Shown here: positions 49,866 to 59,050 of the stretch, piece after piece
How positions within the stretch are numbered: the first letter of the stretch is position 1
Layout of the letters: every line of letters begins with the position of its first letter
Assembly: GCF_000015285.1 (NCBI RefSeq)
Contig: NC_008709.1
Span: 2,790,001 to 2,854,000, forward strand
Source of the DNA: Psychromonas ingrahamii 37
Lineage (GTDB): Bacteria > Pseudomonadota > Gammaproteobacteria > Enterobacterales > Psychromonadaceae
Reading direction: 5' to 3'
Length of the DNA: 64,000 bases
The notes under the pieces: generated by a model
Seen by the model: only the letters and a program-made list of their open reading frames with translations
What the model was told of the DNA's origin: nothing
Databases searched by the model: none
Made by a program: the position numbers and the translations under genes

Positions 49866-49903
49866 CTAAGAGCTAAGAGTGGCGAGCTGCGAGAAGCTCG
49901 AAA

Positions 49904-49935
49904 CTCCAAAGCTCCAAAGCTCCAAAGCTCCAAAG
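49904..49935. repeat. Octamer tandem repeat (CTCCAAAG)x4
   Basis: Four perfect consecutive copies of CTCCAAAG, intergenic, next to the REP-like hairpin. Function unknown; useful as a strain-variable marker. Confidence 0.9.
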
Positions 49936-50050
49936 CTCGAGGATCGCTTTCCCTGCGCATAAAATACACCCTACCGACAACATAACACCAACAAAGCAAA
50001 AGCTGTTCGTCTACTCTAGTGTTATTAGACAAGCCGTTACTGCAATAAAA

Positions 50051-50080
50051 AAGGGAACCCTATTAAAGGTTCCCTTTTTT
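50051..50080. terminator. Bidirectional terminator between SLC13 transporter and DUF5062 gene
   Basis: The 9-bp stem AAGGGAACC/GGTTCCCTT (50051-50059 and 50068-50076) is flanked by A-runs and T-runs on both sides. It lies between two convergent genes. Confidence 0.85.
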
Positions 50081-50100
50081 AACCTATGCCTTTCTAAGCC

Positions 50101-50128
50101 TTATTTCTTATTTCTTATTTCTTATTTC
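50101..50128. repeat. Heptamer tandem repeat (TTATTTC)x4
   Basis: Four perfect TTATTTC units abut the stop codon of the DUF5062 gene; the next, imperfect unit contains that stop. Expansion would lengthen only the 3' untranslated region. Confidence 0.9.
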
Positions 50129-50389
50129 TTATTTTAGCAAAGAGTGATCCGGCGGCAAATGTTTACTTATCCAGATCACTAATTTATGGCGAATATCAGC
50201 CGATGTTTCCTGATCTTTAGGAAGCGGCGAAACCAATTTATCCTGTACTAATAAACGGTAAATACACTCCTGCTTATCCTTGGCAGAGGTTGTTTCATCG
50301 ATGCCGACATAACCCCGTTTTGCTGCGTAGGTTGTCCCTAATTTAATAGCATGTTGTAATAATTGAGATTCATTTTTTATTTTTTTCAT
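50129..50389 (-). CDS. DUF5062-family small protein
   Basis: An 86-residue soluble protein: KKIKNESQLLQHAIKLGTTYA, AKRGYVGID, KDKQECIYRLLVQDKL, DIRHKLVIWISKHLPPDH. It matches my memory of the DUF5062 family in marine Gammaproteobacteria; no function is known. I chose ATG 50389; a TTG four codons upstream is possible. Confidence 0.7.
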   Translation of the reverse strand: MKKIKNESQLLQHAIKLGTTYAAKRGYVGIDETTSAKDKQECIYRLLVQDKLVSPLPKDQETSADIRHKLVIWISKHLPPDHSLLK

Positions 50390-50667
50390 CGCGTTACCCA
50401 ATATGGTTAATACTCATAACAAGTTTATAAATTTTTAAAGACAATAAACCCTGACTTATTTTGTCATTGTATCACTTCAGTTGATAACGCAGAAGCGAGC
50501 TTCAAGATTTCGGGCTTTCAAGCTTTGAGCTTTGGGCTTTGTTGCAAATATGCTTTGTGTTTAATTGTTTATTGCCTGCAAAAAGGTAAGCCATCAATCA
50601 ATTTAACACCCAATAAAAAAATGTGCTAATGGGTGAAAATATCAGAATGGCTTAACCCAATCTCAGT

Positions 50668-52617
50668 CTAGTAAGTTGATATTAACGCCAAGTAATCCAA
50701 TTCTGAAAGTACCTGAACTCCTTTATCACGAGCGGCATTAATTTTATTTGCCCCTACCTTATCGCCAGTGACAAGGAGTGAAGTCTTACCGGTTACTGAT
50801 TTAGCAACCTTAGCGCCCAGTGCTTTAGCTTGCTTCTCCATATCTCCTCTTGAACCTTGAGTCATCGCGCCAGTAAACACAATAATTTTTCCAAAGACGG
50901 GGGTTTCACCCGGAGATTTTTCTGAAGCCTTCGGGGTTATTGTCAAATTAAAATTCAATGCACTCAGTTTAAGAAATTCTTCCTTTATATTGGCTAAGCC
51001 TTCTACAATGGCATCTGCACTCACTTGTGCAAAACCATCAAGCTGCACTAAATCTTCCACAGTAGCTTCAAACAAAGAGTCTAATGAATGGTGTTGCAAT
51101 AATTTTTCACAATTTCCCCCAGCTAATCGACTTACACCAAAGGCGGCCAAAAATCGCCAGTCTTCAATTTCAACATCACGACTAACTTGAAGCTGCTCCA
51201 CTAAATTTTGAGCTGTTTTATCGCCAAATCCAAAACTGACAAAGCTTTCTTGTTTTAGCTCATAGATTTCATGGATTTTCTTTATTCCAAACTCATGAAG
51301 CTTTTCAATCACCTTAGGACCAAAACCATCATTATTGCCTAATGTTTTGAAAAAATGGACCAGGGTATTCTCTGTTTGTGCTGGACAGTCGGTTTTATTA
51401 GGGCATACCAAATGGTCTGATTCCCAAATTAAATGCGTACCACAACTAGGGCATTCCTTGGCTAACTGGGGCTCAACCGCTTTAATCACTTTCTCAATTT
51501 TTGGAATAACGAGTCCGCTTCTAACAAGCTGCACGATTGCACCAGGGCCAACACCATTAGTTTTAACCATATTGTAATGGTGTACAGTAGCTCTACTAAT
51601 TGTTGCGCCACTTAGCTTGGTAGGCTCTAACTCGGCGACGGGTGTAACACGTCCAGTTCTTGACGTTTGCGGCGTTACATTTAACACTTTGACTTCAGCT
51701 GATTCCGCATTTACTTTAAAAGCAATCTGCCATCTATGATGGTGACGTGTCGCCCCCATATGCTCTTTTAGAGTTTCATTTGTTACTTCTAAAACAACCC
51801 CATCAATATCATAATCTACAGCAGACCACATCTTTTCAACAATTGATTCGAAATCGACTAAAATTTCGGTGTAATGGCCAATCCAGTTTTCAAGTGATAA
51901 GAAAGGAAAAAATACACAAGCCCCTACATCTATTGCCTTTTGAATGGATTCATCAACCTTCTTTTCTGCAATAATGGCTGCCTGAATATTTCTTGAATTT
52001 TCAAATTTATCACTAAGAACCGTATCGAAATAGCTTTTCTTAATGACAATTTCACCCGGCCCTAAGCCTCGATCCCCATTGTTTGCAACTTGTAGACCCT
52101 TATTAAACGCTCGGGTAATATCTTGGCCTCTGGCACCGTCTCCACGAGTATAAAGAGATATCCCATCATCATATGCAGCATAGCCATCTAGCTTTGGAGT
52201 GACTTTGATTTGTATTTCAGATTCGCTTACACCGACTTCTATCGCGGCTTTTAACAATCTATCAATCCATTTTTTAATTTCTTCAAAAGAATATGCTTTA
52301 TCTGTCGATAGCATTTTTTTTGGCAAAGGAACTGTTTTGCTATCCGCTAATACTTCAGGCTCAACAGTTAATAAGTAAGGATGATCGGGATTATAAGTAC
52401 TGAACTCACTTAGGAAAGCATCGTAAGTTGAATCATTAATGATTTGCTCAGCTGAACGGTAAAACGCATTGGTTACCTTTAAAACATCAAGCTGTTCATT
52501 TGAATTAAGGGATGAAAAATCAACACTTTTATTACAGGCTTCAATTAGCTTAGACATTGATAACTCCACAGCTAGTTTTTTAAATACTTCTTCCTGACTT
52601 TTACTTAATGTGATCAT
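50668..52617 (-). CDS. Divergent NAD+-dependent DNA ligase (LigA-like)
   Basis: A 649-residue ligase that seals nicks using NAD+. Adenylation Lys142 is in the PKLDG motif, followed by LYTRGDGARGQDIT. The OB fold, a four-Cys zinc finger (CPSCG, then CPNKTDCPA), helix-hairpin-helix repeats (about 430-560) and a C-terminal BRCT domain (about 570-649) are all present, so it looks complete and active. It is unlike typical proteobacterial LigA in the Ia domain: residues 50-130 lack the usual YYxxDxPxxxDxxYDxL pattern. It lies at the zipA locus downstream of a canonical ligA relic and probably replaced it or supplements another copy. Confidence 0.88.
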   Translation of the reverse strand: MITLSKSQEEVFKKLAVELSMSKLIEACNKSVDFSSLNSNEQLDVLKVTNAFYRSAEQIINDSTYDAFLSEFSTYNPDHPYLLTVEPEVLADSKTVPLPKKMLSTDKAYSFEEIKKWIDRLLKAAIEVGVSESEIQIKVTPKLDGYAAYDDGISLYTRGDGARGQDITRAFNKGLQVANNGDRGLGPGEIVIKKSYFDTVLSDKFENSRNIQAAIIAEKKVDESIQKAIDVGACVFFPFLSLENWIGHYTEILVDFESIVEKMWSAVDYDIDGVVLEVTNETLKEHMGATRHHHRWQIAFKVNAESAEVKVLNVTPQTSRTGRVTPVAELEPTKLSGATISRATVHHYNMVKTNGVGPGAIVQLVRSGLVIPKIEKVIKAVEPQLAKECPSCGTHLIWESDHLVCPNKTDCPAQTENTLVHFFKTLGNNDGFGPKVIEKLHEFGIKKIHEIYELKQESFVSFGFGDKTAQNLVEQLQVSRDVEIEDWRFLAAFGVSRLAGGNCEKLLQHHSLDSLFEATVEDLVQLDGFAQVSADAIVEGLANIKEEFLKLSALNFNLTITPKASEKSPGETPVFGKIIVFTGAMTQGSRGDMEKQAKALGAKVAKSVTGKTSLLVTGDKVGANKINAARDKGVQVLSELDYLALISTY

Positions 52618-52741
52618 TTTAATATTTTTTCCTAATGTAACGCTATTATATTTAGCTATTATATCTGTTCATGCTCATTCGTAAACTTCGCTTCTATTCT
52701 TTTAGCTAATCCTCAATGAACTGTAACGGTCATTACAAGAT

Positions 52742-52978
52742 TCATTGGCAATATAAAGGTGGTTTTGTACGAATCAGGGAAGGTTTGGCCGTCGGTGAAT
52801 TTGGATTTAAATATTCAGGGTGATATTTTTCGAAGGTTTGTCATTGCTGAAAAATCCGATCATATTCGCTGTCCGGCACATTGGGATTATCAAGTACATA
52901 ATATTGATAGTTATATTCTTCTGATAAGGCCGTCAATCTTTGTATTTCGTTCTCTGTACTTATATCCAGACCATATTT
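52742..52978 (-). pseudogene. ligA: Relic of the canonical ligA (5' ~79 codons)
   Basis: Read on the minus strand this segment gives EIQRLTALSEEYNYQYYVLD, then NPNVPDSEYDRIFQQ, a TGA stop at 52841-52843, and in the same frame QTFEKYHPEYLNPNSPTAKP, then SLIRTKPP. This matches the N-terminal Ia domain of ordinary LigA (YYVLDxPxxPDxEYDRLF... HPEL.TPDSPT). It lacks a usable start, has an internal nonsense codon, and ends after about 80 codons. It lies exactly where ligA normally follows zipA. Confidence 0.88.
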
Positions 52979-52989
52979 TTTTATAAAAA

Positions 52990-53010
52990 AACCTCGCTGC
53001 CCGAGGTTTT
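52990..53010 (-). terminator. Terminator of zipA
   Basis: The stem AACCTCG/CGAGGTT with a short GGGCAG-type loop is followed by TTTTTTTATA on the minus strand, 25 bp after the zipA stop. Confidence 0.85.
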
Positions 53011-53034
53011 ATTTTACGTTTTTCTTGCTCACAA

Positions 53035-53910
53035 TTACACATAACGCATAAGTCGCTGGTGATCATCTCTATATTCCTGCTCCGTTAACGGCTCTCGTTG
53101 TGCATTTAAAACCACACAGTCAAACTCTTCAGTCATCTGCTCTACGGCCGTTAGCATCATATCAAATGCGGTTTTAATATTAATCTCCAGATTCGGCGCA
53201 ACAACAAAAAAGGACACCCCTTCGCAGGAAATTCGCCCCATCCGATCCGGATCAAATATGCCCGGCTCCAGCATATTGGCAATACTAAATAAAATAGGTC
53301 CGTTGCCGTCGGAATGTAAATGGCGGTGAAAAATAGATCGCTCACCAAAACGGAAACCGGAGGTTAAGAAAAACTGTAATAAATCATGTCCGAGTAATTT
53401 AGTACCTTCTTTTGCAACAACGTTAAAAATAAAAACATCCTGTGGTTCATTATTTGCGTTATTTGCAGCAGCTTTTTCATCATCCGCCTCCAACTCAAAA
53501 TAATTTACCTTGCCATCTTCTGTTTCTTGATCTGTCTCTTTCTCTTTGACATTTAAAGAAGATTCTTGTAAAGATTCGTCTGGAAGAGAATCAGAAAGAT
53601 TAACTTTTGGGCTGTCCTTTTTATCACTATCCTCTTGTCCATTAAAATGAAGCGCTTCAAAATCATCATCTTCTGAAATTGAAAAATCGATTTGCTCTTG
53701 ATCGTCTTGATCGCTCCGATAATTGAACTTCAAATCATCAATAGCATCTTCAGCGGGGTCCACATTCTCTTTTTCAGAGAAAATATCAGTGGTTATTTTA
53801 TTCTCAAACAGTACTTTTTTTTCTTTTCGATTAATTAAATACCCATGAATTAATACTGCGGCAATGGCAATTAGCCCAATAAAAATAAGAATAGATTGAA
53901 AATGCTGCAT
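53035..53910 (-). CDS. zipA: Cell division protein ZipA
   Basis: ZipA anchors FtsZ to the inner membrane. The 291-residue product shows the usual three parts: an N-terminal membrane helix (FQSILIFIGLIAIAAVLIHGY), a long, acidic, flexible linker (about 40-150), and the C-terminal FtsZ-binding domain (about 157-290: DVFIFNVVAKEGTKLLGHDLLQ, then GVSFFVVAPN and CEGV). The usual partner ligA is now a relic downstream; cysZ lies divergent upstream, as in E. coli. Confidence 0.93.
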   Translation of the reverse strand: MQHFQSILIFIGLIAIAAVLIHGYLINRKEKKVLFENKITTDIFSEKENVDPAEDAIDDLKFNYRSDQDDQEQIDFSISEDDDFEALHFNGQEDSDKKDSPKVNLSDSLPDESLQESSLNVKEKETDQETEDGKVNYFELEADDEKAAANNANNEPQDVFIFNVVAKEGTKLLGHDLLQFFLTSGFRFGERSIFHRHLHSDGNGPILFSIANMLEPGIFDPDRMGRISCEGVSFFVVAPNLEINIKTAFDMMLTAVEQMTEEFDCVVLNAQREPLTEQEYRDDHQRLMRYV

Positions 53911-54076
53911 GGTAAGTTCTCTTAATTGAAAAATATAATTAGATGACTGTTAAAGTACCTTTATTAAATGAAAGCGTCTACTATTGCCTATATTTTTTTA
54001 TAAAACTGCTACACGTTTATACAAAGCCCATATTTTTCGTTAGACTCCTGTTTTTGATAAATTTAAAGAGTAAATT

Positions 54077-54868
54077 ATGATCCAAAACCAACTTATAACA
54101 CAGCCCCTTTCGGGTGCAGGTTATCTCCTTAAAGGCGCAAAACTTATCAGCCATCCCAAATTGCGGATTTTTGTATTGATACCGTTAATCATTAATATAC
54201 TTATTTTTGCCGCTGCCTTTTGGTTTCTGTTTAGTTCTATAACACAATGGATAGACAGTTATATGGCAGCTCTACCGGCATTTTTAAGCTGGTTAAATTA
54301 TCTTTTATGGCCTATTTTAGTCCTGACCATTTTGTTCGCTTTTACCTTTATTTTTTCTGCGGTCGCTAATTTAATCGCCGCCCCTTTTAATGGTTTATTG
54401 GCAGAAAAAACTGAAATAATATTAACCAATCAGCCATTAGATGATCCAGGTTTGTCTGACCTGATTAAAGATTTACCGCGTATATTTAAACGAGAGTTAC
54501 AAAAACTGGCTTACTTCTTGCCGAGAATGTTGTTCTGCGGTCTATTATTTTTTATTCCGGGTTTTGGACAAATAGTTGCCCCCTTTATCTGGTTTGTATT
54601 TGCAGGTTGGATGATGGCCATACAGTATGCTGATTTCCCCTTCGATAATCATAAAATTCCTTTTGCGACCATGAAACAGGCATTAAGGAAACGTTTAGGC
54701 AAAAATTTAACGTTCGGGATGCTGGTGAGTTTCTTTACGACTCTCCCTATTATAAACTTTATCATTATGCCGATTGCGGTGTGCGGCGCGACGGCTTTTT
54801 GGGTGGATGTCTATAAACAAGAATCACTAAACTCCCTCACTTCACCAGAAATCTCGGTTAATGATTAA
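54077..54868 (+). CDS. cysZ: Sulfate transporter CysZ
   Basis: A 263-residue inner-membrane protein of the CysZ/EI24 family, which supplies sulfate for cysteine synthesis. The start GAGYLLKGAKLISHPKLRIFVLIPLIINI and the LIAAPFNGLLAEK block are family hallmarks; about four to six hydrophobic segments follow. Divergent from zipA with a 166-bp intergenic region. Confidence 0.93.
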   Translation: MIQNQLITQPLSGAGYLLKGAKLISHPKLRIFVLIPLIINILIFAAAFWFLFSSITQWIDSYMAALPAFLSWLNYLLWPILVLTILFAFTFIFSAVANLIAAPFNGLLAEKTEIILTNQPLDDPGLSDLIKDLPRIFKRELQKLAYFLPRMLFCGLLFFIPGFGQIVAPFIWFVFAGWMMAIQYADFPFDNHKIPFATMKQALRKRLGKNLTFGMLVSFFTTLPIINFIIMPIAVCGATAFWVDVYKQESLNSLTSPEISVND

Positions 54869-55082: not shown

Positions 55083-55559
55083 TTAGGATTTTAATAATCG
55101 ATATAAGGTTGGCGCATCGAGTTTTTCTATATATTCCTCATAACCGATCCCTTTTTCAATAATATACTCAGTGAGTAACTTTTTTACCATTTGTAATAAC
55201 TGCTTAGGATCCCACACTTTTTCTAAAAAGTTATCAATTTTGGCGTTATTGATTGCATCGATAGTATCAGCTTGTGTTGCAAGGCCTGTTAACAGTAATT
55301 TTTTCGTGCCAAGAAAACGATTATCCATTGCCACTTCAGTCAATAACTCGACCCCTGATTTTTCCGGCATAATATGATCAGAAATAATCAAGGCGACATA
55401 TTTCTGCTGTGCATCGAACTCTTCTAATAGCGCTAAGCATTCAAAAGCAGACTCACACTCTTCAATATTAAATATATCGCTAAAATAATCGAGGTCGCGG
55501 CTGACCGATTCCAAGACGTCACGTTCATCATCAACACAAATAATATTAATTTTTTCCAT
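55083..55559 (-). CDS. Single-domain response-regulator receiver protein (copy 1)
   Basis: A 158-residue receiver with no output domain. The acidic pocket is VDDE (Asp10/Asp11), the phospho-acceptor is Asp61 (ISDHIMPEKSG), the switch Thr lies in LLLTGLA and the Lys in FLEKVWDP. A 35-residue tail (EYIIEKGIGYEEYIEKL) follows. It is downstream of an SLC13 transporter, 38 bp after that gene's stop. This pair is repeated in tandem at 57122-59050. Its partner kinase is not in the window; it could couple signalling to transport. Confidence 0.88.
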   Translation of the reverse strand: MEKINIICVDDERDVLESVSRDLDYFSDIFNIEECESAFECLALLEEFDAQQKYVALIISDHIMPEKSGVELLTEVAMDNRFLGTKKLLLTGLATQADTIDAINNAKIDNFLEKVWDPKQLLQMVKKLLTEYIIEKGIGYEEYIEKLDAPTLYRLLKS

Positions 55560-55597
55560 TTTTCTTTCTCAAATTAAATTGCTTAACAAAAAATGAC

Positions 55598-57016
55598 TTA
55601 GCCAATAAAATGGGCTTTATTCATAATGAATAACATAGCAAAGGCGACTGATATACCAATAATACCAATAATAATGCCGATTTTTGCCATCTGCTTGGTT
55701 TCAATATGACCTGAAGCATAAGCAAGTGCATTCGGTGGCGTGCTGACCGGTAATGACATACCTAATGATGCGGAGAACGTTACTGAAAGAATGAGTACCA
55801 CTTGCCCGCCATAGGGTAGTAATGAATGCATCGAAGCACCCAATGTAGCAACCAAAGGTAATAAAAGGTTTGCGGTGGCCGTATTGGACATAAAGTTAGC
55901 CATCAGTAAACACAGCATGGATGCCCCAACAATCAAAAGCAGAGGATGGAAATTATTAAAGGGGATAGCATCAACTACATGGGCAGCCAGTCCTGTTTTA
56001 TCAAGTGCCAACCCTAATGCTATACCACCAGAGACCAACCACAAGACGTCCCATGGAATATTTTTTAAATCTTCTTTGTTGATAATATTAAAGATGGAGA
56101 ATATCGCAACGGGGAGCATTGCGACCACATAGGAACTCATTCCATGCAGGTTTCCCATCAACCACAATAAAATGGTCAACAAAAAGGTGCCGTAAACTAA
56201 CCAGGCTTTAGGTGTTTTTAAAAATATTCCTTCAATATTTAAATCGATTTGCTGAGTTGATGTTGGAAATAGTTTTATTAATAATAACCAGGCGATAAAT
56301 AACATCACCACCACAAAAGGCACACCGATCGACATCCATTCAGCAAAACTAATACTGTTTTCATTCACTAAATATTTAAGTGCGACTGCATTAGGTGGAG
56401 TACCAATCGGGGTTGCTATACCCCCTATATTAGCCGCGACAGGGACCGATAAAGCAAATGCGACCTTACCCAAATCTTCAGCGGCAAATAACGCCAGCAC
56501 CGGTGTTAAAATAGACAGCATCATGGCGGTGGTTGCTGTATTACTCATAAACATAGAAAACACGGCGGTAATAAGCATAATACCAAGCATTACATACTTA
56601 GGATTGTAGCCAAAAGGACGTAATAATACGCGTGCTAAATTAATATCTAAACGGTATTTGGTAGCCGCCAGCGCTAAAAAGAAACCACCTAAAAAGAGCA
56701 TAATAATAGGCGATGCAAAGGTTGCCATAATGGCAGTTTGACTGAGCAACTGCCCTTGTTGTTCAGGAGCACTGTTAGTTGCGAACCATAATCCATTGTC
56801 CGAGATAAGTAACAGTTCTAAGACAATAATTAAAACGGAAGTGGCGTAGATAGGAATTGGCTCTAAAACCCAACATAGCGTAGCCATAACAAAAATAGCA
56901 ATCACCCGCTGCTCTACCAATGTTAAACCGTCAAGAGCAAAACTGTCAGCAGGTAATAAAAGCACAATTAATGGCAGTAAAATAGGTAAAGTATACTTTA
57001 AATTCCGCTTTAACAT
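55598..57016 (-). CDS. SLC13/DASS-family transporter (duplicate 1)
   Basis: A 472-residue sodium-coupled anion symporter. The SNT motifs are MSNTATTAMMLSIL and MSNTATANLLLPLV, with GGIATPIGTPPNAVAL and SLPVSTPPNALAY. RBS AAGGATT precedes the ATG. It heads a two-gene unit with the receiver gene and closely resembles duplicate 2. Confidence 0.9.
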   Translation of the reverse strand: MLKRNLKYTLPILLPLIVLLLPADSFALDGLTLVEQRVIAIFVMATLCWVLEPIPIYATSVLIIVLELLLISDNGLWFATNSAPEQQGQLLSQTAIMATFASPIIMLFLGGFFLALAATKYRLDINLARVLLRPFGYNPKYVMLGIMLITAVFSMFMSNTATTAMMLSILTPVLALFAAEDLGKVAFALSVPVAANIGGIATPIGTPPNAVALKYLVNENSISFAEWMSIGVPFVVVMLFIAWLLLIKLFPTSTQQIDLNIEGIFLKTPKAWLVYGTFLLTILLWLMGNLHGMSSYVVAMLPVAIFSIFNIINKEDLKNIPWDVLWLVSGGIALGLALDKTGLAAHVVDAIPFNNFHPLLLIVGASMLCLLMANFMSNTATANLLLPLVATLGASMHSLLPYGGQVVLILSVTFSASLGMSLPVSTPPNALAYASGHIETKQMAKIGIIIGIIGISVAFAMLFIMNKAHFIG

Positions 57017-57121
57017 TCAATAATCCTTTAATAAAGTGGTACTTCAGGCAGGGTAGAGTTATCAGTTGTAACACCTACCGTTAAAGTATAGCTTTATTCA
57101 TTATTGATGTGATTGCTGTGA

Positions 57122-57595
57122 TTATTTGAGTAATCGATATAAGGTCGGTGCATCCAGTTTTTCTATATATTCCTCATAATCGATCCCTTTCTCAATAATA
57201 TACTCAGTGAGTAACTCTTTTACCATTTGCAATAATTGTTTAGGATCCCACACTTTTTCTAAAAAATTATCAAGTTTGGCGTTGTTGATTGCCTCGATAG
57301 TATCAGCTTGTGTTGCAAGACCCGTTAACAGTAATTTTTTCGTGCCGAGAAAACGATTATCCATTGCCACTTCAGTCAATAACTCGACCCCTGATTTTTC
57401 CGGCATAATATGATCAGAAATAATCAAGGCGACATATTCCTGCTGCGCATCAAACTCTTCTAATAACGCTAAACATTCAAAAGCAGACTCACATTCTTCA
57501 ATATTAAACATATCGCTAAAATAATCGAGGTCGCGGCTGACCGATTCCAAGACTTCACGTTCATCATCAACACAAATAATATTAATTTTTTCCAT
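57122..57595 (-). CDS. Single-domain response-regulator receiver protein (copy 2)
   Basis: A 157-residue near-identical copy of the receiver protein at 55083-55559, differing at only about ten residues. The same pocket and phospho-acceptor (ISDHIMPEKSG) are intact. It follows duplicate 2 of the transporter with a 39-bp gap. The high similarity compared with the diverged transporters suggests recent duplication or gene conversion. Confidence 0.88.
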   Translation of the reverse strand: MEKINIICVDDEREVLESVSRDLDYFSDMFNIEECESAFECLALLEEFDAQQEYVALIISDHIMPEKSGVELLTEVAMDNRFLGTKKLLLTGLATQADTIEAINNAKLDNFLEKVWDPKQLLQMVKELLTEYIIEKGIDYEEYIEKLDAPTLYRLLK

Positions 57596-57634
57596 TTTTG
57601 CTTCCTCAAATTAAATTGCTTAATAAAAAATAAC

Positions 57635-59050
57635 TCAGCCAATAAAATTGGTTTTATTCAGAATAAATAACATAGCAAAAGCGACCAATACACCAACAAT
57701 ACCAATAATCACGCCTATTTTTGCCATCTGCTTGGTTTCAATATTACCCGATGCATAAGCCAGTGCATTAGGAGGCGTACTGATAGGTAATGACATTCCT
57801 AAGGAGGCAGCAAAAGTGACGGCCAGAATTAAGACAACTTCACCACCATAGGGTAATAAAGACTGCATTGTTGTTGCTAATGCAGCAATCAGGGGCAGTA
57901 ATAAATTGGCGGCCGCCGTGTGGGAGATGAAATTCGCCATCACTAAACACAACATGGAGGCGCCAAGGATCAATAAAAGAGGATGTAAATTGCCAAAAGG
58001 GATTGCATTAACCGCATTTTCCGCAAGACCGGATTTATCTAACGCGACACCTAATGCAATACCGCCTGATACCAGCCATAACACATCCCAGGATATGCGC
58101 TTTAAATCCTCTTTATTAATAATCTTAAAGGTCACAAAGACAGCGACCGGGATTAATGCCACAACATAGGCATTCATGCCATGTATATCACCCATTAACC
58201 ACAATAGAATAGTGCCGATAAAGGTAATATAAACCGTAATAGCTTTGGGGGTTTTTAAAAATTTACCTTTAATATTGAGATTGATTTTCTCCGTTGATGT
58301 TGGAAACAGTTTTATTAATAGTAACCAGGCGATAAATAACATCACCATCACAAAGGGCACACCAAAGACCATCCATTGCCCAAAGGAAATACTGTTTTCA
58401 TTGACTAAATATTTTAATGCGATGGCATTAGGAGGGGTGCCAATAGGAGTTCCTATGCCACCAATATTGGCGGCGACAGGCACAGATAACGAGAATGCAA
58501 CTTTGCCTAGGTCTTTAGTCGCTAGCAGGGCAATAACCGGTGATAAAATGGATAACATCATGACTGTCGTTGCAGTATTGCTCATAAACATGGAGAAAAC
58601 CGCCGTGATCATCATCAGACCCAACATCACATACTTGGGTTTACTGCCGAAGGGTTTAAGTAATACTCTGGCCAAATTAACATCTAAGCGATATTTGGTT
58701 GCCGCCATAGCCAAAAAGAACCCACCTAAAAAAAGCATAATAATAGGAGATGCAAAGGTTGCCATAATGGTTTGATAACCGATTAAATGGCCTAAATCCG
58801 GGCTGGGTGTTTTAAAAAACCATAACCCTTTGTCGGAAATTAATAATAACTCAGAGACAATAATAACCACTGAGGTTGCGAAAATAGGGATGGGCTCTAA
58901 TACCCAGCAAAGTGTCGCCAGCGCAAAAATCGCGATCACTCTTTGTTCAATTAGGGTAAGTCCAACAATACCAAAACTATCGCTGGGTAAAATAAGAATA
59001 ATGAAGGGGATACAAACAGGTAACAGGTACTTTAAATATTGACTTAACAT
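57635..59050 (-). CDS. SLC13/DASS-family transporter (duplicate 2)
   Basis: A 471-residue paralog of duplicate 1, same topology. The first SNT motif is kept (MSNTATTVMMLSIL), but the second is altered to ISHTAAANLLLPLI, where Asn of SNT becomes His. That position belongs to a sodium site in characterised family members, so coupling or specificity may differ. GGIGTPIGTPPNAIAL is retained. Confidence 0.9.
   Translation of the reverse strand: MLSQYLKYLLPVCIPFIILILPSDSFGIVGLTLIEQRVIAIFALATLCWVLEPIPIFATSVVIIVSELLLISDKGLWFFKTPSPDLGHLIGYQTIMATFASPIIMLFLGGFFLAMAATKYRLDVNLARVLLKPFGSKPKYVMLGLMMITAVFSMFMSNTATTVMMLSILSPVIALLATKDLGKVAFSLSVPVAANIGGIGTPIGTPPNAIALKYLVNENSISFGQWMVFGVPFVMVMLFIAWLLLIKLFPTSTEKINLNIKGKFLKTPKAITVYITFIGTILLWLMGDIHGMNAYVVALIPVAVFVTFKIINKEDLKRISWDVLWLVSGGIALGVALDKSGLAENAVNAIPFGNLHPLLLILGASMLCLVMANFISHTAAANLLLPLIAALATTMQSLLPYGGEVVLILAVTFAASLGMSLPISTPPNALAYASGNIETKQMAKIGVIIGIVGVLVAFAMLFILNKTNFIG

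What the first reader, a model, noticed from the sequence alone, without database searches (positions are those of the whole stretch)
50668..53034. Canonical ligA is a relic at zipA; a divergent NAD+ ligase lies beyond it
Seen: minus-strand 52742-52978 reads the Ia domain of ordinary LigA (EYNYQYYVLD, PDSEYDRIF, HPEYLNPNSPT) with a TGA inside and no start, directly after the zipA terminator. An intact but divergent 649-residue ligase gene follows 125 bp later. Inference: an essential housekeeping gene was replaced in place, or its role moved elsewhere. Such non-orthologous displacement at the conserved zipA-ligA locus is unusual.
Basis: seen in the sequence. Interest (0 to 1): 0.82.

Follow-up and report, generated by a model that had tools for sequence, protein, structure and literature searches.

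The report
Mobile element hijacks essential DNA-ligase gene
In this marine bacterium the essential gene for sealing DNA breaks has been swapped for a distant relative that, in other bacteria, is carried by mobile DNA islands which land inside the original gene, break it and supply the replacement.

Summary
A dead 5' stub of canonical ligA follows zipA, then an intact 649-aa NAD+ ligase, the only NAD+ ligase found in the complete genome. The sister species keeps canonical ligA at this spot, so the swap was in place.

The same ligase clade (63-81% identity) occurs sporadically across Gammaproteobacteria, with zipA upstream in 34 of 37 named loci. None of 36 host genomes, nor of 13 carriers in a second, overlapping sample, has a full canonical LigA. 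In eleven loci a ligA 5' piece ends beside the ligase at one of two conserved sites; in nine genomes the 3' piece is found too, in four on the same contig, 24-72 kb away. Beside the 3' piece lies a tyrosine-recombinase operon. Island ends 99.7-99.8% identical sit in ligA genes 72% identical. The ligase starts 1-14 nt after the broken ligA frame and lacks both sites.

Best reading: SE/GInt-like islands that insert into an essential gene and bring a site-less rescue enzyme; the window is a decayed descendant keeping only the ligase. Activity is untested, and the window may instead have imported a ligase-only allele.

The parts
53035..53910 (-). zipA, intact; gene upstream of ligA in relatives
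   Evidence: ZipA_C 1.5e-40, TIGR02205 above cut-off
52784..52981 (-). relic of canonical ligA, domain Ia (codons about 1-60); no start, one in-frame TGA
   Evidence: tblastn E 2e-18 to Psychromonas LigA; 86% DNA collinearity with sister G021 up to 52791
52618..52790 (-). spacer of unknown origin between relic and ligase; left breakpoint of the swap at about 52791
   Evidence: DNA match to sister ends at 52791; no island left-end remnant found here
50668..52617 (-). replacement NAD+-dependent DNA ligase, 649 aa, the only NAD+ ligase found in the genome
   Evidence: nucleotidyl lysine, most other examined active-site positions and zinc cysteines kept
50539..50667 (-). stretch without match to the sister between ligase and right breakpoint; right edge approximate
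   Evidence: match to sister resumes at about 50539
50129..50401 (-). DUF5062 gene, normal neighbour downstream of ligA in Psychromonas
   Evidence: found in 18 of 28 relative ligA loci searched, which are the 18 same-genus ones (kinship)

Best explanation
The 649-aa ligase is the surviving gene of a family of integrative genomic islands whose landing site is the essential gene ligA. An island inserts, most likely by tyrosine-recombinase chemistry, at one of two conserved places in ligA (codon about 338, GRTGA|ITP; or about 384, RAGDV|IP), which cuts off the rest of the enzyme. The first gene of the island is a complete NAD+ ligase related to plasmid ligases. It starts just after the reading frame of the broken ligA, so it should inherit ligA transcription and translational coupling and rescue the cell. 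The rescue gene lacks both insertion sites. At the other end is a four-gene module: a protein of about 720 aa (recombinase-like by eye only), a large tyrosine recombinase, a small protein and an ordinary tyrosine recombinase. Cargo between differs (defence systems, copper resistance, transport). In many lineages cargo, recombinases and ligA pieces were later lost and only the ligase stayed, because it had become essential. The window is such a remnant, fixed after the split from its sister species. Shown: location, split, ends, module, near-identical islands in diverged hosts, absence of full canonical LigA in the genomes searched. Inferred: that the ligase seals nicks in vivo, that the module acts on these sites, and the order of events in this genome.
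For: Location: 34 of 37 named loci have a zipA homologue directly upstream. Exclusivity: 0 of 36 held host genomes has a canonical LigA N-terminus in a frame over 433 aa; 13 of 394 genomes of the order carry the ligase at 65% identity or more (partly the same genomes) and 0 of those 13 has a full canonical LigA, while 4 of 4 comparison genomes do. Split: 11 of 37 loci have a ligA 5' piece ending at site 1 or 2; 9 of the 10 held ones also have the 3' piece, 0 of 26 others. Module: the large recombinase is full length in 8 distinct genomes, all with split ligA, and in 0 of the 26 held ligase-only genomes. Mobility: island ends 99.7-99.8% identical in two Alteromonas hosts whose ligA halves are 72% identical; 96% against 80% (Acinetobacter) and 82% (Marinomonas). 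Coupling: likely start 1-14 nt past the ligA' stop in 11 of 11 (three are near-identical islands). No target site in 36 of 36 replacement ligases scored. KxDG lysine and four zinc cysteines kept in 36 of 36. Left-end remnants in 2 of 26 ligase-only loci.
Against: The window keeps no island end, cargo or large recombinase, and its ligA relic stops near codon 60, not at site 1 or 2, so a further deletion or an import of a ligase-only allele must be assumed. Left-end remnants were found in only 2 of 26 ligase-only loci. Two split genomes, G051 and G052, lack the large recombinase, perhaps from incomplete assembly. In five split genomes the ligA halves lie on different contigs, so the island is not seen whole. 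G051 joins site 1 on the left with site 2 on the right. The 5' piece of L055 is broken into two frames. Several examined ligase positions are changed in all 36 rows. The site-less state is partly shared by plasmid relatives, so it need not be an adaptation. The recombinase nature of the 720-aa protein has no profile support. No activity was measured.
Confidence: 0.87

Rival explanations
1. A variant of the last step only: the window gained just the ligase gene, by homologous recombination between flanks with a donor that already had a ligase-only locus; no whole island ever inserted in this lineage. The origin of the ligase in ligA-targeting islands would still stand.
For: Collinearity on both sides and no island remnant; ligase-only loci are the commoner state, 25 of 36 tree rows.
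Against: No direct evidence against. The nearest ligase in the tree is the island-borne one of Psychromonas sp. SA13A, 80%, which fits either path.
Confidence: 0.35
2. Ordinary gene replacement: ligA decayed by chance after a second ligase had been acquired, and islands later used the dead gene as a harmless site.
For: Distant plasmid-type ligases coexist with full canonical LigA in G034 and G517.
Against: In split loci the ligA halves are mostly open and complementary, the ligase is the island's own first gene, and near-identical islands carry it into ligA genes only 72-82% alike.
Confidence: 0.07
3. The replicative role moved to another enzyme and the 649-aa protein is accessory.
For: An ATP-type ligase gene exists in the genome; some examined positions of the 649-aa protein differ from canonical LigA.
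Against: The ATP-type protein starts with a signal-peptide-like stretch (by eye); the 649-aa protein keeps the nucleotidyl lysine, Ia Tyr/Asp residues, motif V lysine and zinc cysteines.
Confidence: 0.04

Closest known systems
SE, strand-biased circularizing integrative elements (PMC10214605; abstract, most of section 3, sections 6, 12, 13 and passages seen)
   Same: Gammaproteobacterial islands with two tyrosine recombinases, one recombinase-fold protein and one small auxiliary protein; imperfect inverted ends; 6-bp spacer at the joint; few target sites; frequent in marine orders.
   Different: SE gene order is intA-tfp-intB-srap; here it is 720-aa protein, large recombinase, small protein, ordinary recombinase. 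The main text has no occurrence of liga or ligase (supplements not seen). Here the target is the middle of an essential gene and a full replacement is carried.
GInt, ginABCD islands (PMC5385486; abstract and passages seen)
   Same: Four-gene operon at one end, variable cargo of 2.5-70 kb, site-specific; several target ssb.
   Different: Order ginABCD; the authors say insertion probably does not fully inactivate the target. No occurrence of ligase in the main text.
Tn552-II, likened by its authors to Tn554 (PMC12486829; passages seen)
   Same: Carries a target-gene-like gene that the authors suggest may rescue the disrupted target.
   Different: Targets are a plasmid gene and a YolD-like gene, not an essential enzyme; three transposition genes.
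Plasmid NAD+ ligases of Gammaproteobacteria
   Same: Neighbours of the clade in the tree; the 25 plasmid records listed of 219 are 32-44% identical.
   Different: On plasmids; two chromosomal relatives at 34-38% coexist with full canonical LigA.
Canonical LigA
   Same: Same domains; same reaction expected.
   Different: Separate group in the tree; 337 bits against the LigA equivalog cut-off of 444.

Membership tests
NAD+-dependent DNA ligase | adenylation, OB, zinc finger, HhH and BRCT domains | tested here: met
   the zinc-finger model is just under its cut-off (22.8 against 25.8 bits), but four cysteines are kept in 36 of 36 rows
NAD+-dependent DNA ligase | active-site lysine KxDG and Ia Tyr/Asp residues | tested here: met
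   36 of 36 rows for these; other examined positions changed in all rows are listed in the report; motif names recalled
canonical LigA equivalog (TIGR00575) | score above curated cut-off | tested here: not met
   337.1 against 444.45 bits
LigB | NF005987 above cut-off | tested here: not met
   82.7 against 498 bits
SE | two RHRY tyrosine recombinases, one fold-only protein, one small coiled-coil protein | tested here: inconclusive
   numbers and sizes fit; the 450-aa and 660-aa proteins show recombinase signatures; the 720-aa and small proteins have no profile support and were judged by eye
SE | gene order intA-tfp-intB-srap | tested here: not met
   order differs
SE | 6-bp spacer differing between the two ends, strand-biased circle, no empty site | tested here: inconclusive
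   a 6-bp spacer can be read by eye between the inverted ends; equal at both ends in G011, different in others; circles not testable
GInt | ginABCD order | tested here: not met
   order differs
GInt | GinC-GinD sequence cluster | not tested
   GInt sequences not obtained
Tn554 | tnpABC only, no counterpart of Tfp | tested here: not met
   a fourth gene is present
Gamma-Mobile-Trio | gmtY, gmtZ, gmtX | not testable with these tools
   paper not held; gene names recalled

The most novel reading that the evidence does not exclude
A mobile element family has settled on an essential replication gene as its regular landing site and carries a full-length rescue enzyme that lacks the landing sites and borrows the victim gene's own expression. 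This is a natural counterpart of synthetic home-and-rescue gene drives. If it moves by copying out, as SEs are thought to, the insertion cannot be undone, so each visit fixes the replacement ligase and repeatedly causes non-orthologous displacement of a core replication enzyme across genera.
Probability: 0.7. Interest if true: 0.9.

Novelty: new variant of a known kind. Interest (0 to 1): 0.82.

Why it matters
Core replication genes are generally thought to be shielded from such swaps. Here a mechanism for repeated replacement of an essential enzyme is visible in its stages: island in ligA, ligase with a ligA stub, and replacement without a stub. It offers a natural case of target disruption with rescue, a marker for a poorly annotated class of islands that carry defence systems, and a caution for ligA phylogenies and for LigA as a drug target, since hosts can carry a different ligase.

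Tried and rejected
Second canonical LigA elsewhere: rejected. ATP ligase as replicative substitute: thought unlikely from its signal-peptide-like start (by eye). Phage origin: the 20 phage records listed of 1195 are under 30% identity, no closer than canonical LigA. Target duplication of 5 bp as left by many DDE transposases: none seen by eye in the junctions inspected. Surveys for the large recombinase: 0 of 369 genomes of the class (single-sequence query, no positive control inside) and 1 of 394 of the order, although 13 of those 394 carry the ligase; so whole islands are rarer than ligase-only loci, by how much is not well estimated. Rfam search of 49900-54200: nothing at gathering threshold. 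Island left-end remnant in the window: none. Dropped rows: L066 and L068 (no ligase frame of 600-700 aa in those loci) and L096 are not in the ligase tree and residue counts. Literature: the listings show no report of an island in ligA; several of these queries were weak because the short term liga also matches ligase and ligand, and supplements were not available. No structure was predicted.

Full report
Observation. The window holds zipA (53035-53910, minus), a relic of the 5' end of canonical ligA (about 52784-52981) and an intact 649-aa ORF (50668-52617). The relic matches codons 1-60 of a Psychromonas LigA with E 2e-18 in the whole window. Only one NAD+ ligase is found. The ATP-type ligase is a 279-aa ORF that begins with a signal-peptide-like stretch, judged by eye.

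In-place swap. Of 28 relative ligA loci searched, 18 showed the DUF5062 gene near ligA; these are the 18 of the same genus, and G021 is the closest by that gene, 98%. G021 has canonical ligA in a 672-codon frame. The window is collinear with G021 at 86% DNA identity until 52791, inside ligA, and matches again at 79-91% from about 50539, about 0.2 kb past the G021 ligA stop. The right edge falls in short repeats and is approximate. The replacement therefore happened at the locus after these two lineages split.

The ligase. Pfam finds the LigA domains; it scores 337 bits against the LigA equivalog cut-off of 444 and far below that of LigB. In an alignment of 36 clade ligases (35 of the 37 loci and the window) with 11 canonical ones, the Ia tyrosine and aspartates, KxDG lysine, RGDG, the last glutamate of EVRGEV, the NPRN arginine, the DG of motif IV, the motif V lysine and the four zinc cysteines are kept in 36 of 36. 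Changed in all 36 are one Ia residue (to Arg), the glutamate two places before the KxDG lysine (to Thr), the first glutamate and the arginine of EVRGEV, and a motif IV lysine (to Glu) (motif names recalled). The tree separates the 11 canonical rows from the rest at 100/100 and holds the 36 clade rows together at 99/99. The five plasmid-type rows lie next to the clade on long branches whose place is unsure, and the program warns of long branches meeting, the canonical branch included. The two Acinetobacter rows fall inside a 100/99 group of otherwise Alteromonadales rows.

The locus in other hosts. A scan of named genomes gave 37 loci at 63-80% identity. In 34 a zipA homologue lies directly upstream; L037, L051 and L060 show none, of which L051 keeps a ligA relic and L060 begins at its contig end. 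Eleven loci carry a ligA 5' piece ending at site 1 (L042, L043, L044, L062, L063, L064) or site 2 (L033, L047, L055, L056, L069); in L055 it is broken into two frames. L051, L046 and the window keep shorter relics; L034 and L036 show only weak traces, E about 0.01. In 36 held host genomes (L055 not held) the canonical N-terminus matched in 12, never in a frame over 433 aa. The 3' piece of ligA was found in 9 of the 36, all among the split ones; split G052 lacks it. The halves lie on one contig in G041, G069, G070 and G071 and on different contigs in the other five. In 8 of these 9 the two pieces meet at the same site; in G051 the left is site 1 and the right site 2.

Second sample, partly the same genomes. 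Of 394 genomes of the order, 14 matched at E 1e-120 or better: 13 at 65% identity or more in nine genera, including the window's own, and one at 38%. None of the 13 has a full canonical LigA; two of them (G011, G703) show a long 5' piece and the 3' piece. G459 and G478 also hold a frame of about 500 aa matching part of LigA. The comparison genomes G014, G021, G034 and G517 have a full canonical LigA; G034 and G517 also carry the distant plasmid-type ligase. In the same 394 genomes the large recombinase was found only in G011.

The island. In G011 (same coordinates as G041, the genome of L033, Psychromonas sp. SA13A) about 24 kb separate the ligA halves; in G069 and G070 about 48 kb; in G071 about 72 kb (distances worked out). 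The left end reads GGTGTCACC in 10 of 11 split loci. Of nine right ends read, six hold its inverse GTGACA (G055, G063, G069, G070, G071, G076); G011, G050 and G051 differ by a base or two. Beside the right end lie minus-strand genes of about 720 (966 in G050), 660, 180 and 450 aa. All four are seen in six right ends (G011, G050, G063, G069, G070, G071); in G076 the contig ends after three, and G055 and G051 show only the first, incomplete. They share 23-63% identity between genera. The 450-aa protein of G011 matches the XerD model at 9e-13, below its curated cut-off, and that of G069 matches PF00589 at 2.8e-7; that of G063 gave no such match at E up to 1 and that of G011 none at 0.001, but the aligned R, K, HxxR and Y positions are shared (by eye). 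The 660-aa protein has the HxxR and GH..Y signature by eye, with PF00589 at 0.03-0.1, and some database relatives are named integrase. The 720-aa protein has no profile support. The 660-aa protein is full length in 8 distinct genomes, all with split ligA; among the 26 held ligase-only genomes 4 gave only partial distant matches. The same gene order at roughly 23-34% identity occurs on a P. aeruginosa plasmid (four genes) and a P. putida plasmid (three genes), without a ligase in the stretches shown.

Mobility. In Alteromonas, L062 and L064 share 99.7% over the first 2 kb of the island, and G069 and G071 (the same two hosts) 99.8% over the last 6 kb, while ligA beside them is 72% identical on both sides. 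Acinetobacter L042 and L047 share 96% against 80% but sit at different sites; Marinomonas L055 and L056 share 96% against 82%. The tree needs at least 13 changes of host family among the 33 rows with a family name, and at least 7 changes between split and ligase-only among 36 rows.

Rescue logic. The likely ligase start lies 1-14 nt after the stop of the broken ligA frame in 11 of 11 split loci. Both sites are entered in the same codon phase. A matrix of each site from 27 of 27 canonical genes scores these at 20.9 (site 1) and 21.5 bits (site 2) or more when each is left out in turn, but the best place in any of 36 replacement ligases reaches 9.0 and 11.0. Among five plasmid-type relatives two keep RAG-D/E at site 2 and three do not, so lack of the sites is partly older than the island.

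Cargo. Of 35 selected proteins of the G069 island and 46 selected from G011 and from the left parts of seven other split loci (not every ORF was given), matches include copper resistance (Cus, Cop), Hachiman, CBASS-type proteins, type I restriction, GmrSD, AriA, ABC-3C, and transport (only the 25 most frequent families were displayed per scan).

Comparison with the known. SE and GInt elements have similar sets of four proteins, site specificity and, for SE, a 6-bp footprint. Gene order differs, and neither main text mentions ligase. SE does not leave an empty site, which would make an insertion in ligA permanent; whether that holds here is untested. A rescue role for a carried target-like gene was suggested for Tn552-II. 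The listings of ten paper searches show no island in ligA.

Verdict. The stronger finding is a family of islands that break ligA and supply its replacement. The step from such an island to the window's present state is inferred.

Noticed in passing
window 55083-59050: Two tandem pairs of a 157-158-aa response-regulator gene and a 471-472-aa transporter gene, very alike, suggest a duplication.
   Followed up: no
L043 and L079 (G051): ligA 5' piece ends at site 1 but the 3' piece begins at site 2, as if two insertions had been combined.
   Followed up: partly
L098, L099, L100: Distant NAD+ ligases on gammaproteobacterial plasmids lie near type IV CRISPR genes (L098), PRTRC genes (L100) and phosphosulfate-reductase-like genes (L099, L100).
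   Followed up: partly
and listings: Names given include the Acinetobacter calcoaceticus/baumannii complex for the ligase and Klebsiella, Aeromonas and Vibrio for the large recombinase.
   Followed up: no
L070 1252-2091: Small ATP-type ligase with a signal-peptide-like start, perhaps periplasmic.
   Followed up: partly
window about 49890-49950 and about 50500-50540: Short GAGCTTTG-type repeats near the DUF5062 gene, also in the sister genome; the right breakpoint of the swap falls in one.
   Followed up: no
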